This document shows, piece after piece, positions 50,352 through 61,360 of a DNA stretch of 64,000 bases. Position 1 is the stretch's first letter. Every line of letters starts with the position of its first letter. The notes below the pieces were generated by a model, which saw nothing but the letters and a program-made list of their open reading frames with translations, had not been told where the DNA came from and did not search any database. The position numbers and the translations under genes are program-made. The stretch lies in the NCBI GenBank assembly GCA_021650895.1, contig CP091278.1, forward strand, positions 3,501,659-3,565,658, written 5' to 3'. The DNA is from Candidatus Jettenia sp. (GTDB lineage Bacteria; Planctomycetota; Brocadiia; Brocadiales; Brocadiaceae).

Positions 50352-53054
50352 ATGGTAATGGTTCCAAAGATTAAATTAAATATTGATGGTAATACGATAG
50401 AAGTGAACAAAGGCAAAACAATTTTACAAGCAGCCAGTTCTATCGGTATTCATATTCCAACCCTTTGCCACGACTCTCGTCTGGAGCCCTTTGCGGCATG
50501 CCGTGTTTGTATGGTAGAGATAGAAAGAGGTAAGTCGAATGCTCTTATTACTTCCTGCAATACTGAAGTTACCGATGGTATGGTTATTCGAACTGATTCT
50601 GAGAAGGTATTAAAAACACGACAAATGGTTTTGGAGTTAATTCTTTCGGATCATCCTAAGGATTGTATGACGTGTGGGAAATGTGGTGCCTGCAAATTAC
50701 AAGATCTCGCTTATGAGTATGGTGTGAGAGAAAGTAAATTTTTTGAGGAACCAGACGGCGGTGTTGTAGAGGATAGTAATCCTGTCATTCAGCAGGATAC
50801 GAGCAAATGTATCCTGTGTGGGCGCTGTGTCCGCATTTGTTCCGAAGTTCAGCAGGATTATGCTATTGATTTCAAGAATCGAGGGTTTAAAACGGAAACG
50901 GGCCTACCATTTGGGATGTCTCGGCGTGATACAACCTGTGTGTTGTGCGGTCAGTGTGTGTCTACTTGCCCTGTTGGTTCATTAGTGGAGAAACAAGCTA
51001 TAGGAATGGGACGGGAGTGGGAGTTTAAGCAGGTCAAAACCACCTGTGCCTATTGCGGTGTAGGTTGTACGATGTACTTAAATGTAAAAGAGAATAAGGT
51101 TGTTAAAGTAACTTCGAAGGCGGGGTCTATTCCTAATGATGGCAACCTATGTGTAAAAGGACGATTCGGGTTTGACTTCGTCCATCATCCTGACCGATTG
51201 AAGCAGCCGCTTATAAAGAGGAATGGGAAATTTGAAGAGGCAACATGGGATGAAGCTCTGAACCTCGTTGCTTCTAAATTAGGTGAAATAAAGGCTAAAT
51301 ATGGGCCAGATTATATAGGAGTAATGAGTTCTTCACGGTGTACTAATGAAGAGAATTATCTAGCAATGAAATTTGCACGTGCTACGATTGGTACAAACAA
51401 CGTAGATCAGTGTGCCCGGACTTGACATGCACCTTCCGTCGCCGGTCTGGCGATGTCATTCGGTAGTGGCTCAATGACCAATTCTATTAGCGAAATTAAG
51501 GATTGCAAACTCATTTTTCTAATTGGCGGCAACCCGACAGAGGCACATCCGATTGTGGGGCTGGAGATGAAGAAGGCTCTAAGGAATGGATGTACTTTTA
51601 TTGTAGCTGATCCACGCAGGATCTGGTTTGCCCAGCATGCCAAGTTGTATCTTCCGGTAAAACCGGGTACAGATAACTGGTTATTGAATGCAATGGCTCA
51701 TGTCATCATTGCCGAAGGTCTTGAAAATAAAGAATTCATAAGTACTCGGACAGAAGGTTTTGAAGAGTTAAAAACATTTGTGAAGGATATTACGCCTGAA
51801 CAGGCCGCGGAATTTACTGGTATTCCGGCAGAAGATATCCGTCAGGCAGCCAGATTATATGCTAAGTCAGAAAAATCAGCCATATATTATACCCTGGGAA
51901 TTACCGAACATACCTGTGGTACCGATAATGTGAGAACTATTGCAAACCTTGCTTTATTAACAGGACATGTCGGAAAATCCAGTACAGGTGTTAATCCCAT
52001 CCGTGGCCAGAATAATGTGCAGGGTGCTACAGATATGTGCATACCGAATAAAATGACCGGATATCAGGACGTTACAGATAATGCGGTTATGGAGAAGTTT
52101 GAGAAGGCATGGGGTGTTACATTATCAAGAACTCCAGGAGCTACTGCGCCGACCATGTTTGAACGCATGGGTAAGAATCAATTTAAGGCCCTGTACGTAA
52201 TAGGAGAAGACCCGGTTATCAGTGAACCTAATCAGGATTCCACCATCAAAGCGCTAAAAAATCTTGAATTTCTTGTTGTACAAGATATTTTTATGTCAGA
52301 AACTGCTAAATATGCAGATGTTATCCTGCCAGCTACTAGTTTTGCCGAAAAGGATGGTACTTTTACTAATACGGAACGCCGTGTCCAGCGTGTTCGGAAG
52401 GCGATTGATCCTGTAGGGAATACAAGGCCTGACTGGCAAATTACCTCTGAATTGTCTACACGTATGGGATACAATATGAATTATCCTTCACCAAAGGAAA
52501 TTTTTGCTGAAATTGCAAATCTTACGCCCATACTCGCAGGCATTAGTTATGAAAGAATCGAGCAAAATGGTATTCAATGGCCATGCCCGGATGCAAAACA
52601 TCCCGGTACTAAATTTTTACATGAAGGTAAATTTCCAAGGGGTCTTGGTAAATTTTTTGTATTGCCCTATCGTGCACCCGCCGAGAGTCCTGATAAAGAG
52701 TTTCCATTACTCCTCTCAACAGGGCGTACTTTGTATCATTACAATGCAGGTACTATGACACGAAGGTCGGAAGGGATTATTCATAAAACAAATGAATGTT
52801 TTGTTGAAGTAAATCAGGCAGATGCAAAGGAATTGGGGATCTTTGACGGTGAAACGGTTAGAATTGCTACACGTCGTGGTGAGATTACTGCTCGTGCCGA
52901 GGTTTCTGAGAAAGTAAAGAAGGGTGTAATCTGGATGCCTATGCACTTTGTTGAGTCTGCTGTAAATAAGTTGACAAAAGATGCATATGATAATATTACC
53001 CAGACGGCGGAATACAAGGTTTGTGGGGCAAAAATTGAGAAACTAGGTGTATAA
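50352..53054 (+). CDS. fdhA: Selenocysteine formate dehydrogenase, NuoG-like N-terminus
   Basis: The 900-residue molybdopterin enzyme oxidises formate to carbon dioxide. A [2Fe-2S] domain (about 5-80), His/Cys-type and 4Fe-4S clusters (about 95-225), and a 4Fe-4S motif CAYCGVGC lead into the molybdopterin part. UGA at 51423-51425 (residue 358) falls in CARTUHAPSVAGLA, where active-site selenocysteine is expected, and the frame is open on both sides. The end ISTRR-style binding domain is present (HYNAGTMTRRSEGI). AAGGAG precedes the ATG by ten bases. A SECIS hairpin follows the UGA. No FdhB, FdhC or FdhD is adjacent. Confidence 0.95.
51437..51455 (+). promoter_or_regulatory. Bacterial SECIS hairpin of fdhA
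   Basis: CGTCGCC (51437-51443) pairs with GGCGATG (51449-51455, one G-U pair) around a GGTCT loop. The loop starts 18 bases after the UGA. Both the loop sequence and the spacing match E. coli fdhF, whose SelB-binding hairpin is well studied. Confidence 0.88.
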
Positions 53055-54311: not shown

Positions 54312-55280
54312 TTAAAGATGACCTTTTGGATTGTATCCCACAATATATACATTATCTTTCCTGTTTCCCCATATACCTAGCAAAAGGTAATCGGTATTGC
54401 TCTTTTGTCGGCTCCATTTTGTGCCGTTATAATAAAGTATCGTACCGTAATCTCCTATTGCAAAGATGTTATTATTATCAATGCCCCATATTCTTCTCAG
54501 CCAGTTATTTGTATCACTTCTCTGTCCCTTCCAATCCATACCATCGTAATGGAAAATGAGGCCATCCGCTCCTACCACGAATACATTTTTAGGATCGGTT
54601 CCCCAAACACTCATAAGCCTTTTATTCGTAATTTGAACAGCAGTATTCCATGTCTTTCCATCGTATCGAAGTATCGTACCGTAATCTCCGACTGAATAAA
54701 TAGTATCCTTACTAGCGCCCCAAATTCCATAAAGCCAGTTAAGGGTTCCACTATATTGTTCTCTCCATTTTTCTCCATCGTAATGTAATATTTTCCCCAA
54801 AACACCAACAATGAATATATATTTCTCACTAAGGCCCCATATACTCGTTAGCCAATCTCCAATACCAATTTCAATTTTTTCCCAACCCGATCTATCATGA
54901 TGAAGAATAGTACCCTGGTCTCCTATAATATAGATGTTTTCTCGGCTGTTACCCCATATTTTATTTAATCTGTGGTAAGTAATATGAAAGTCTTTTTGGA
55001 TAGTCCATGATTTACCATTATAGTGAAGGATAGCGCCATTTTTACCAATTGCGAAGATATCGTTATCGGAAAACCCATAAATATCACTAAGCCACATATT
55101 GAATCCATCATAGACATGATTCCATGACTTGCCATCATAGTGGAGTATAACGCTATCGCACTTATCATATTCCGTTGCTTGTTCTTCTAATCCCCATTGA
55201 TTTGCAAAAACGATATCGTTCGTAGAAGATTGATATATAATAAAAAGGATAGAAATAAAAAGATTTGTAATTATTTTCAT
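54312..55280 (-). CDS. Exported seven-bladed beta-propeller protein
   Basis: The 322-residue protein has a signal peptide (about 1-26) and a 40-residue repeat: IWG, four or five residues, (I/V)-(F/Y)-(A/I)-(I/V)-G, then GTILHYDGK-W. A half repeat at the N-terminus (VILHYDGKSWN) and another at the end (GIWGNRKDNVYIVG) complement each other, the usual closure of a seven-blade ring. No catalytic motif. It lies 144 bases upstream of the hydrolase gene. Confidence 0.75.
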   Translation of the reverse strand: MKIITNLFISILFIIYQSSTNDIVFANQWGLEEQATEYDKCDSVILHYDGKSWNHVYDGFNMWLSDIYGFSDNDIFAIGKNGAILHYNGKSWTIQKDFHITYHRLNKIWGNSRENIYIIGDQGTILHHDRSGWEKIEIGIGDWLTSIWGLSEKYIFIVGVLGKILHYDGEKWREQYSGTLNWLYGIWGASKDTIYSVGDYGTILRYDGKTWNTAVQITNKRLMSVWGTDPKNVFVVGADGLIFHYDGMDWKGQRSDTNNWLRRIWGIDNNNIFAIGDYGTILYYNGTKWSRQKSNTDYLLLGIWGNRKDNVYIVGYNPKGHL

Positions 55281-59468: not shown

Positions 59469-60257
59469 ATGATTACTATATATAAGAAATTACCTAAGAC
59501 AAATTGTGGCAAATGTGGTATGCCCACTTGTATAGCCTTTGCTATTAAAGTAAAAAATGCGCAACTTAAGATGTCTGATTGTCCTTATGTTAATAAAGAA
59601 GACAATGAATCACTCCTCCAGAAAACTACTGTTACTATGGAGGATAACTATGAGCGTGTGAGCAATGAATTAGAAAGCGATGCTAAACAAACAAATTTTA
59701 AAGAGGCCTCCGTTGCTATTGGAGGCCATTTTGAGGAAAAAAACGGGCATGATATTATAAGACTTAACATGATGAATAAACCCTACGAAATGCGTAAAGA
59801 AGGCTTGTTTGAAGATGGTAAGTATTGCTATGATTCCTGGTCAAAGATTATCATATATGATTATATCCGTAGGAAAGGAAACAAATCTTTAACAGGGAAT
59901 TGGGTTACGCTAGGTTACTTTCCTAATACTGCTTCCCATGTAAAGGCATTTCAGCGTAGTGCAGAGGAAAAGGTTGCTGCTATTTTTAATAAGAATATGA
60001 AAGGCTTGAAAGCACGCTGTAAGGAATTTGGTGGGGTAGAAGATATGGGTAAGATGAAGGCGGATTATATTTGTCGTTTTGACCTCTTGCCACGCATACC
60101 TTTGTATTTATGCTTCTGGGAGGCTGACGAGGAATTTTCAGCCAGTTGTAAACTCTTTTTGGATACGAGTGCAGAGGCCTATATTGATATAGAATATCTT
60201 GCCTATCTTGTAGAAAGATTTGTAGAATTATTTGTTACATTGCTACCAATTAAATAA
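59469..60257 (+). CDS. 4Fe-4S domain plus DUF3786 protein
   Basis: The 262-residue protein opens with an iron-sulfur domain (C13, C16, C21, C38 in TNCGKCGMPTC and SDCPYV), as found in corrinoid/iron-sulfur and related proteins. A DUF3786-like domain follows (about 80-255: WVTLGYFPNTASHVKAF, LPRIPLYLCFWEADEEF). Some DUF3786 proteins occur near carbon monoxide or corrinoid metabolism. AT-rich DNA and no clear ribosome site precede it. It is 12 bases before the CxxC protein. Confidence 0.72.
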   Translation: MITIYKKLPKTNCGKCGMPTCIAFAIKVKNAQLKMSDCPYVNKEDNESLLQKTTVTMEDNYERVSNELESDAKQTNFKEASVAIGGHFEEKNGHDIIRLNMMNKPYEMRKEGLFEDGKYCYDSWSKIIIYDYIRRKGNKSLTGNWVTLGYFPNTASHVKAFQRSAEEKVAAIFNKNMKGLKARCKEFGGVEDMGKMKADYICRFDLLPRIPLYLCFWEADEEFSASCKLFLDTSAEAYIDIEYLAYLVERFVELFVTLLPIK

Positions 60258-60269
60258 GGAAGATATACC

Positions 60270-60443
60270 ATGGCCAATTGCTGGAAATGTGGTCATTTCC
60301 TCGGAGAAAAAGATGAGTGGAAAAAGATGGCTACTGTGAAAGGAGATATTTGTATTCTGTGTTATAATAAGGCTAAAGAGACTGATGGCCCACGTATAAA
60401 GGCTGATATAGATGCCTTTTTAAAGGATAGAGAAAACCAATAA
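60270..60443 (+). CDS. 57-residue Cys-pair protein
   Basis: ATG 60270 lies eight bases after AAGGAAGA and the frame encodes 57 residues with CWKC at 4-7 and CILC at about 28-31, then a charged helical tail. A zinc or iron site is likely. It is too short for confident family assignment. Position between the 4Fe-4S protein and the seleno-thioredoxin suggests a shared transcript. Confidence 0.6.
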   Translation: MANCWKCGHFLGEKDEWKKMATVKGDICILCYNKAKETDGPRIKADIDAFLKDRENQ

Positions 60444-60541
60444 TGAATTTTCATTGACTTTGTAACATTATTTTGGCATGAATCTAATTATGAGATTCTT
60501 TTAATCCTTCCCATATTTTTCCTAAAAGAAGGAGGTCAACC

Positions 60542-61189
60542 ATGTTAGAATATGCCTTATCTTATCTTATTGTACTTACACTCGCTCCTTTTGCAACAAC
60601 ACTCATTGCAGACGCTAAGGGCAAACTTTCAACGATACCGTGGGAAAATACCTTTGAAGAAGCGGTAAAAAAAGCAAAAGAAGCAGGCAAGCCGATTTTA
60701 TTAGACTTCTTTTCTCCTACATGAGCAGGCTGTAAAACCCTGGGTACCGTGACGTACCCAAATGCTGCAGTAACCGATTACATCAATAGAAACTTTATCC
60801 CTTTACATATCAGTACACAAAGCAATTCAGACCTTCTGAGTAAATACCGCATATTTTGGACACCAACCATTCTTGTTTTAGATTCTGATGGTACTGAATA
60901 TTATCGTTTTCATGGTTTTCTCCCATCTGATGAATTTATTCCGCAATTGGAATTTGGCTTAGGTAAGATGGTGCTGGAAAAGCATGATTATAAAACGTCC
61001 AGCACTAAATTAAAATCTGTGGTAGATAAATATCCGAAGAGCGGTATTGCGCCTGAGGCACAATATTGGCTGGGTGTTTCAGAGTACAAGGCAACTCATA
61101 ATGTTGATGCATTATTAAATGCATGGCGGAAGATCATGAAGGATTATCCAAATAGTATTTGGGCTGATAAAGTATCCTTTGCTTTTTAA
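60542..61189 (+). CDS. Exported thioredoxin-like selenoprotein (UxxC)
   Basis: Reading the in-frame UGA (60722-60724) as selenocysteine gives a 215-residue protein. An N-terminal signal/anchor (about 5-23) leads to a thioredoxin fold: KPILLDFFSPT, U61-A-G-C64, KTLGTVTYP, the cis-Pro loop FWTPTILVLDSDG, then a helical C-terminal part (about 140-215) like TPR/YbgF tails. Cysteine-containing relatives have CxxC here, so U61 would be the attacking residue. AAGGAGG precedes the ATG. A SECIS hairpin follows. A TGT-to-TGA pseudogene is the alternative but the open frame and hairpin argue against it. Role may be exported disulfide chemistry or peroxide defence. Confidence 0.78.
60741..60760 (+). promoter_or_regulatory. 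SECIS-like hairpin of the thioredoxin-like gene
   Basis: TGGGTAC (60741-60747) and GTACCCA (60754-60760) pair perfectly around loop CGTGAC. The loop begins 23 bases after the UGA, within the known bacterial range, and its second base is G, as required of bacterial SECIS loops. The stem can also pair further on one side. SelB binding is inferred. Confidence 0.7.
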
Positions 61190-61239
61190 AGAATTGATTG
61201 CGGGTGTGAGCCAATAAAAAAGTTCTTACAATCGATATT

Positions 61240-61289
61240 TCTATACAATAGATAGAGATACTGCTATTCATCCTTATCTATTGTATAGA
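61240..61289. repeat. 15-bp perfect inverted repeat between convergent genes
   Basis: The left arm (61240-61254) and right arm (61275-61289) pair perfectly (TCTATACAATAGATA with its inverse) around a 20-base loop. Stem is AT-rich and no T-run follows, so it may be a bidirectional stop, a repeat or a protein site. Confidence 0.65.
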
Positions 61290-61360
61290 GATAGATTCCT
61301 GATGGGCTAAAAATATTTCATTTTTTTAACTCTAAGGCCTTTTACGGAAAAAATTTTAAA

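What the first reader, a model, noticed from the sequence alone, without database searches (positions are those of the whole stretch)
60542..61189. Apparent thioredoxin-like selenoprotein with a UxxC motif
Two plus-strand frames (60542-60724 and from 60725 to 61189) are the same frame interrupted by one UGA. That UGA stands exactly where a thioredoxin fold has its first active-site Cys, followed three residues later by Cys (U-A-G-C). The downstream half is fully coherent: a cis-Pro loop and a helical tail. The protein has an N-terminal export signal or anchor. A thioredoxin-type UxxC selenoprotein exported in this lineage, with a helical tail, is little described to my knowledge.
Basis: partly seen in the sequence, partly recalled or inferred. 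Interest (0 to 1): 0.85.

Follow-up and report, generated by a model that had tools for sequence, protein, structure and literature searches.

The report
Exported thioredoxin-TPR selenoprotein of anammox bacteria
An anammox bacterium and dozens of its relatives carry an exported thiol-redox protein whose active site uses the rare amino acid selenocysteine, written as a stop codon in the DNA, and this protein family is missing from the published lists of selenoproteins that I could consult.

Summary
The finding is real. Window 60542-61189 is one gene of 215 codons, read through one UGA (60722-60724), in a Candidatus Jettenia genome. The genome has tRNA-Sec, selA, selB and selD. The UGA is followed after 17 nt by a hairpin, GGGUAC-CGUGAC-GUACCC, whose codons are fixed in relatives and whose stem keeps pairing through a G-C to A-U change. 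Orthologues or paralogues with the UGA at the same residue occur in 24 of 33 genomes of the family and in further Planctomycetota. Two relatives from a family without detectable selA carry Cys (TGC) there. The part after the UGA is under strong purifying selection.

The 'helical tail' is a TPR domain (YbgF/BamD-like), so the protein is an exported thioredoxin-TPR fusion. The genome has two paralogues: B, with a signal-peptide-like start, and C, with none. Both have the same architecture, UGA and hairpin.

No NCBIfam model claims it, and a 2026 list of prokaryotic selenoproteins names no thioredoxin-TPR family; the nearest entries are a broad Thioredoxin_2 UxxC class and TsoB. Most likely it is a selenium-dependent thiol-disulfide reductase, recharged by DsbD, with TPRs that hold clients. 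The chemistry, electron donor and clients are inferred.

The parts
60542..61189 (+). CDS of 215 aa with one selenocysteine (U61), stop TAA at 61187-61189
   Evidence: single frame through one TGA, conserved over its whole length in relatives
60530..60535 (+). ribosome binding site AGGAGG, 6 nt before the ATG
   Evidence: AGGAGG or close variants precede the aligned ATG in most orthologues
60542..60610 (+). N-terminal hydrophobic export signal or anchor (residues 1-23)
   Evidence: hydrophobic stretch ending ADxK, like Ala-x-Ala cleavage sites, in A and several B copies, absent from C copies; residues 1-28 of low confidence in the model. No dedicated signal-peptide program was run
60629..60952 (+). 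thioredoxin-fold domain (Thioredoxin_2 / Thioredoxin_7), about residues 30-137
   Evidence: PF13098 1.3e-15, PF13899 2.1e-11
60722..60724 (+). UGA read as selenocysteine 61, first residue of UxxC
   Evidence: Cys (TGC) at this position in L087 and L088
60731..60733 (+). Cys64 (TGT), resolving residue of UxxC
   Evidence: invariant column
60742..60759 (+). bacterial SECIS-like hairpin: stem GGGUAC/GUACCC (60742-60747 with 60754-60759), loop CGUGAC (60748-60753), 17 nt after the UGA
   Evidence: 100% of cells pair; G-C to A-U change on both sides in 5 sequences; codons +7 to +10 identical in 100% of synonymous comparisons against about 54% elsewhere
60863..60865 (+). Pro108 of the WTPT (cis-Pro) loop
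   Evidence: invariant column
60962..61165 (+). C-terminal TPR domain (residues 141-208), YbgF/BamD-like
   Evidence: TPR_6 E 6.6e-5, 23.7 bits against a 26.3 cut-off; YfiO 3.1e-4; TIGR02795 YbgF 6e-12, below its cut-off; BamD and YbgF TPR, Z 11-13

Best explanation
The gene encodes a selenoprotein. SelB carrying Sec-tRNA reads the UGA at codon 61 because of the hairpin 17 nt downstream. The product is exported by its N-terminal signal and folds into a thioredoxin domain with a Sec61-x-x-Cys64 active site followed by a small TPR domain. The Sec selenolate most likely attacks disulfides or oxidised thiols of envelope proteins, Cys64 resolves the intermediate, and the resulting selenenylsulfide is reduced again by the genome's single DsbD. 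The TPR domain most likely holds client or partner proteins. Shown computationally: the gene, the UGA, the hairpin, the Sec machinery, Sec/Cys exchange, the fold and purifying selection. Inferred: actual Sec insertion, export, reductase direction, DsbD as donor and the TPR role. The confidence given is for 'UGA-decoded selenoprotein with a thioredoxin-TPR architecture'; for the full reductase/DsbD mechanism it is about 0.5.
For: tRNA-Sec with TCA anticodon; selA, selB and selD, the selD itself with an in-frame TGA. All 28 aligned relatives have TGA at the Sec column, and more lie in the order and phylum. Cys (TGC) versions occur in G059 and G060, which lack detectable selA. Across 75 class genomes, genes with the UGA track selA: 29 of 32 with against 11 of 43 without, Fisher p 1e-8, not corrected for phylogeny. 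The hairpin pairs in every sequence of A2 with a compensatory change and is fixed at synonymous sites. dN/dS after the UGA is 0.06-0.24. The Trx domain resembles DsbD-gamma and the tail resembles YbgF/BamD TPR. One DsbD of 610 aa with a CxxC gamma domain is present.
Against: No expression, proteomic or 75Se data. The folding energy of the single hairpin is not exceptional against shuffles (z -1.19). Neighbouring genes of A give no functional link. Some anammox genomes lack it (g6) or keep only a relic (G004, G013), so it is not essential to anammox. Three genomes with a UGA gene (G001, G013, G040) show no selA, though all three are fragmented drafts. DsbD as donor is inferred from fold resemblance only.
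Confidence: 0.93

Rival explanations
1. Pseudogene or sequencing error: a Cys codon (TGT/TGC) turned into TGA, so that only a 60-residue stub is made.
For: Two Brocadiaceae genomes do carry a decayed copy that has lost its thioredoxin half.
Against: The TGA is at the same codon in over 40 genes from many independent genomes and in three paralogues. dN/dS after the TGA is 0.06-0.24. There is a conserved hairpin and the full Sec machinery.
Confidence: 0.01
2. The UGA is decoded as another amino acid (reassignment to Trp or Gly) or by plain readthrough without selenocysteine.
For: Without mass spectrometry the inserted residue is not known directly.
Against: Selenocysteine machinery is present. 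Cys, not Trp or Gly, replaces it in relatives without detectable selA. Several orthologues also use TGA as their final stop, so TGA is not globally reassigned.
Confidence: 0.02
3. The protein is a selenoprotein but works as an oxidase or isomerase (DsbA/DsbC-like) or as the thiol partner of a peroxidase, not as a disulfide reductase fed by DsbD.
For: Exported thioredoxin folds serve in both directions. The nearest solved relative by sequence is annotated as a putative disulphide-isomerase (2KUC).
Against: Sequence and fold scores favour DsbD-gamma and thioredoxin-like reductases; the genome has a DsbD.
Confidence: 0.3
4. The protein is a chaperedoxin in the sense of CnoX: a holdase whose TPR domain binds unfolded proteins while Sec protects or repairs their thiols.
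For: Same domain order (thioredoxin, then TPR); the E. coli CnoX/YbbN structure 3QOU is the best whole-chain Foldseek hit. CcCnoX is a reductase with a TPR holdase (PMC6282202).
Against: The Foldseek match superposes poorly (TM 0.36, rmsd 11.7). The tail is shorter and YbgF/BamD-like. A and several B copies carry an export signal, whereas EcCnoX hands its substrates to DnaK and GroEL.
Confidence: 0.2

Closest known systems
'Thiol:disulfide interchange protein' selenoprotein family (PF13098, UxxC, representative WP_011366075.1; PMC13188914 Table 1)
   Same: Same Pfam domain as the best hit here (PF13098), Sec as first residue of UxxC, in silico prediction.
   Different: No TPR domain is mentioned for it. 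Its representative could not be fetched, so relatedness beyond the domain is untested.
DsbD C-terminal (gamma) domain, and the rhodanese/DsbD fusion selenoprotein TsoB (NF045694)
   Same: Best NCBIfam alignments of the thioredoxin domain (residues 10-136); exported thioredoxin fold with Cys or Sec active site.
   Different: Scores far below both cut-offs (56.5 of 805; 51.6 of 330). No transmembrane or rhodanese part, and a TPR domain instead.
CnoX / YbbN chaperedoxins
   Same: Thioredoxin domain followed by TPR domain; CcCnoX is a reductase (PMC6282202).
   Different: Larger TPR domain, WCG/XPC or SXXC motif (PMC6282202); here UxxC, an export signal in A, and YbgF/BamD-like TPRs.
VPGUxxT (NF041382/3), Trx7/PDZ (NF041199) and SaoT thioredoxin-like selenoproteins
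   Same: Thioredoxin-fold selenoproteins that NCBI models.
   Different: Other Sec motifs (VPGU; CxxU) or no hit; matches here are partial and far below cut-off. SaoT did not appear among the hits.

Membership tests
bacterial selenoprotein | in-frame UGA aligned with a redox Cys of homologues | tested here: met
   UGA in 41 of the 43 rows of the tree, Cys (TGC) in L087 and L088 at the same column
bacterial selenoprotein | SECIS hairpin just after the UGA, with conserved pairing | tested here: met
   loop 24 nt after the UGA, invariant G-U in the loop of A3, compensatory change
bacterial selenoprotein | Sec machinery (selA, selB, selC, selD) in the genome | tested here: met
bacterial selenoprotein | selenium in the protein (75Se or mass spectrometry) | not testable with these tools
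   no experiment possible
'Thiol:disulfide interchange protein' selenoproteins (PF13098, UxxC) | PF13098 domain with UxxC | tested here: met
   58 bits against a cut-off of 27
'Thiol:disulfide interchange protein' selenoproteins (PF13098, UxxC) | homology to the representative WP_011366075.1 over its whole length | not testable with these tools
   that sequence was not retrievable here
CnoX/YbbN | thioredoxin domain followed by TPR domain | tested here: met
CnoX/YbbN | close superposition on the solved CnoX/YbbN structure as a whole | tested here: inconclusive
   3QOU top hit but TM 0.36, rmsd 11.7; domain arrangement may differ
CnoX/YbbN | WCG/XPC or SXXC active-site motif | tested here: not met
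   PTUAGC here, U-x-G/S-C in the aligned family
TsoB (NF045694) | score over the curated cut-off; rhodanese/DsbD fusion | tested here: not met
   56.5 bits of 805, only the C-terminal thioredoxin part
DsbD (NF001419) | transmembrane DsbD domain and score over cut-off | tested here: not met
   only residues 453-569 of the model; the genome's one DsbD_TM gene lies elsewhere (C1:2323508)
VPGUxxT thioredoxin-like selenoproteins (NF041382/NF041383) | VPGUxxT motif and score over cut-off | tested here: not met
   29-36 bits of 275-350; motif here is PTUAGC

The most novel reading that the evidence does not exclude
Planctomycetota have a Sec-dominated thioredoxin-TPR family, with almost no Cys forms. 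In several anammox genera it has spread into three paralogues, exported and non-exported, that act as selenium-based chaperedoxins: TPR-held clients are repaired by a UxxC site, giving part of the anammox bacteria a selenium-dependent redox quality control of the envelope or anammoxosome. Because deep-Sep's homology filter asks for a known Sec homologue or at least two Cys-containing homologues among the top ten hits (PMC12013277), such a family could be passed over.
Probability: 0.2. Interest if true: 0.6.

Novelty: new variant of a known kind. Interest (0 to 1): 0.45.

Why it matters
It adds an apparently unlisted selenoprotein family, thioredoxin fused to TPR and partly exported, and shows that most anammox genomes examined carry it while those of genus g6 (probably Kuenenia) do not. 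It makes selenium a testable factor in anammox cultures. Since the active site reads as a stop codon, automatic annotation is likely to truncate or split these genes, which would hide them. The Sec-rich, Cys-poor pattern is unusual: the literature describes almost all selenoproteins as having many Cys homologues (PMC12013277).

Tried and rejected
Pseudogene, sequencing error and code reassignment were rejected (see rivals). Rfam gave no match over threshold in 60400-61300; the weak mir-BHRF1-2 and STnc560 matches are chance. Plasmids and viral contigs hold no relative. The single-protein scan of genome contigs found only Ca. Jettenia ecosi, because it reaches close relatives only; the profile searches of class and phylum did the work. 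Neighbourhoods: A sits in a conserved block (ftsY, an SdhB/FrdB-like gene, a small gene, a LOG-family gene, A; with a CxxC protein and DUF3786 upstream in some genera), which gives no clear functional link. B lies by a gene that looks like bacteriohemerythrin in Jettenia, and C lies near pirin-, isochorismatase- or FMN-reductase-like genes (judged by eye from sequence). A covariance model of the hairpin found only A, B and C in the genome; the other matches are at chance level, and fdhA is missed because its SECIS is too different, so the model does not count the whole selenoproteome. The held literature has no paper on anammox selenoproteins. The deep placement of the Cys forms in the tree is unsure because of long branches.

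Full report
WHAT IS THERE. Window 60542-61189 (+) is a single reading frame of 215 codons, interrupted by one TGA at 60722-60724 (codon 61), with AGGAGG before the ATG and TAA at the end. The window lies in a 3.82 Mb single-contig genome at C1:3501659-3565658. The gene is 98% identical to one in Candidatus Jettenia ecosi J2, and the genome that holds that copy is counted as same genus, so the host is an anammox planctomycete of the genus Jettenia (lineage). Of 115 TGA codons in the window that end an open stretch of 50 or more codons, only two are followed by at least 140 open codons: this one and the TGA of fdhA at 51423. fdhA, with its expected U-H-x-P site, is a useful positive control in the same window.

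SELENOCYSTEINE MACHINERY. The genome has a tRNA-Sec with TCA anticodon (67.8 bits), selA, selB (next to selA) and selD, which itself carries one TGA.

CONSERVATION THROUGH THE UGA. In the Brocadiaceae genomes searched, every full-length relative of this protein has exactly one TGA, at the Sec column; the TAA reported for some rows lies outside the reading frames given. The 28-row alignment has Sec61 and Cys64 as invariant columns, with Trp34, Pro108 and others. dN/dS downstream of the UGA is 0.06-0.24 in nine pairs. Several orthologues also end in TGA, so the same gene uses TGA both as Sec and as stop; this speaks against a changed genetic code.

SECIS. 17 nt after the UGA lies GGGUAC-CGUGAC-GUACCC (60742-60759). 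All six pairs form in all 18 distinct aligned sequences; one pair changes on both sides (G-C to A-U) and another shows G-U (shuffles reach the covariation score 0 of 500 times, with the caveat that related rows inflate this). Codons +7 to +10 after the UGA are identical in 100% of the comparisons where the amino acid is the same, against 54% for the rest of the gene. The hairpin recurs, as GGAUGC or GGAUAC with GUAUCC, in relatives from several other Planctomycetota families, including G+C-rich sequences. In one subgroup (L083-L085) this stem is broken or shortened and another hairpin seems to take its place (by eye). The fold energy of a single sequence is unremarkable, so the case rests on the comparison.

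SEC/CYS EXCHANGE AND CO-OCCURRENCE. G059 and G060, from a family in which no genome shows selA, carry full-length relatives with Cys (TGC) at residue 61, and the hairpin is gone. Over 75 class genomes the UGA gene and selA occur together (29 of 32 against 11 of 43; Fisher p 1e-8, phylogeny not accounted for). The genomes of genus g6 (probably Kuenenia, by size and contiguity only) have neither. In the tree 41 of 43 rows carry Sec and the two Cys rows form one group; its deep branches are uncertain.

WHAT THE PROTEIN IS. Residues 30-137 match Thioredoxin_2 (1.3e-15) and Thioredoxin_7 (2.1e-11); residues 141-208 match TPR_6 and YfiO weakly and YbgF at 6e-12, below its cut-off. AlphaFold2 gives mean pLDDT 82.9 with a thioredoxin fold, then helices, and a low-confidence N-terminus; the active-site stretch 65-68 is also of low confidence. 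Foldseek puts CnoX/YbbN (thioredoxin plus TPR) first but with poor superposition; 2KUC, DsbH and DsbD-gamma match the first domain. VIA-align matches the tail to BamD and YbgF TPRs and the front to 2KUC at Z 11.8 (rmsd 2.6, 116 aligned). The N-terminus looks like a signal peptide (hydrophobic stretch, ADxK end); this was judged by eye.

PARALOGUES. The genome has three such genes: A (this one), B at C1:2279893 (IGUASC, signal-like start) and C at C1:1463848 (NPGUIGC, no signal). A hairpin model finds exactly these three. In G021, G027 and G030 A and B are adjacent; in G027 and G030 B has lost the signal. Two genomes retain only the TPR half of A, in at least one of them (G004) at the same syntenic place.

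HOW IT MOST LIKELY WORKS. Sec is inserted by SelB at the UGA under direction of the hairpin (well supported). The protein is exported (inferred from sequence). Sec61 attacks a disulfide or oxidised thiol, Cys64 resolves (inference from thioredoxin chemistry, established knowledge). The single DsbD (610 aa, with CxxC gamma domain) is the likely electron source (inference). The TPR domain binds clients or partners (inference from CnoX, PMC6282202).

COMPARISON WITH THE KNOWN. A 2026 table of prokaryotic selenoproteins (PMC13188914) lists many thioredoxin-fold families; the words TPR and tetratricopeptide do not occur in that paper. The nearest entries are the PF13098 UxxC 'thiol:disulfide interchange protein', whose representative I could not compare, and TsoB. 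No NCBIfam model reaches its cut-off for the window protein. In the held papers I found none describing anammox selenoproteins. Hence a new variant of a known kind: a thioredoxin-TPR selenoprotein family, with the caution that unread supplements, such as that of PMC4807772, may list a member without naming it so.

Noticed in passing
window 50352-53054 (+), TGA 51423-51425: Formate dehydrogenase alpha subunit (fdhA) with one in-frame TGA at the U-H-A-P site, followed by a hairpin with a GGUCU loop: a second, classical selenoprotein gene in the same window.
   Followed up: partly
window 60270-60443 (+): 57-residue protein with CxxC pairs and no Pfam match, conserved next to gene A in Jettenia and in two further genera.
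   Followed up: partly
window 59469-60257 (+): FeS plus DUF3786 protein upstream of gene A, also adjacent in G016 and G028.
   Followed up: partly
window 61230-61297: Long AT-rich inverted repeat (TATCTATTGTATAGA arms) between the convergent gene A and the LOG-family gene, perhaps a terminator for both.
   Followed up: no
window 54312-55280 (-): 322-residue exported-looking protein of repeats like 'ILHYDGKSW', without a Pfam match.
   Followed up: no
L089 2770-3080 (G004), L090 2456-2749 (G013): Relics of gene A that keep only the TPR half, near ftsY: loss of the gene in two Brocadiaceae genomes.
   Followed up: yes
L083, L084, L085 (order family f3): UGA relatives in which the usual stem is broken or shortened and a different hairpin (CGGC-UGGAU-GCCG in L083 and L084) may serve instead.
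   Followed up: no
G000:C1:2198205-2199131 (L023): selD of this genome is itself interrupted by one TGA, so SelD is probably a selenoprotein.
   Followed up: no
G031:C196:799-1206 (L052), G014:C149:645-1058 (L055): DsbD-like matches with one or two TGA inside the matched frame; not checked whether these are Sec codons, stops or assembly errors.
   Followed up: no
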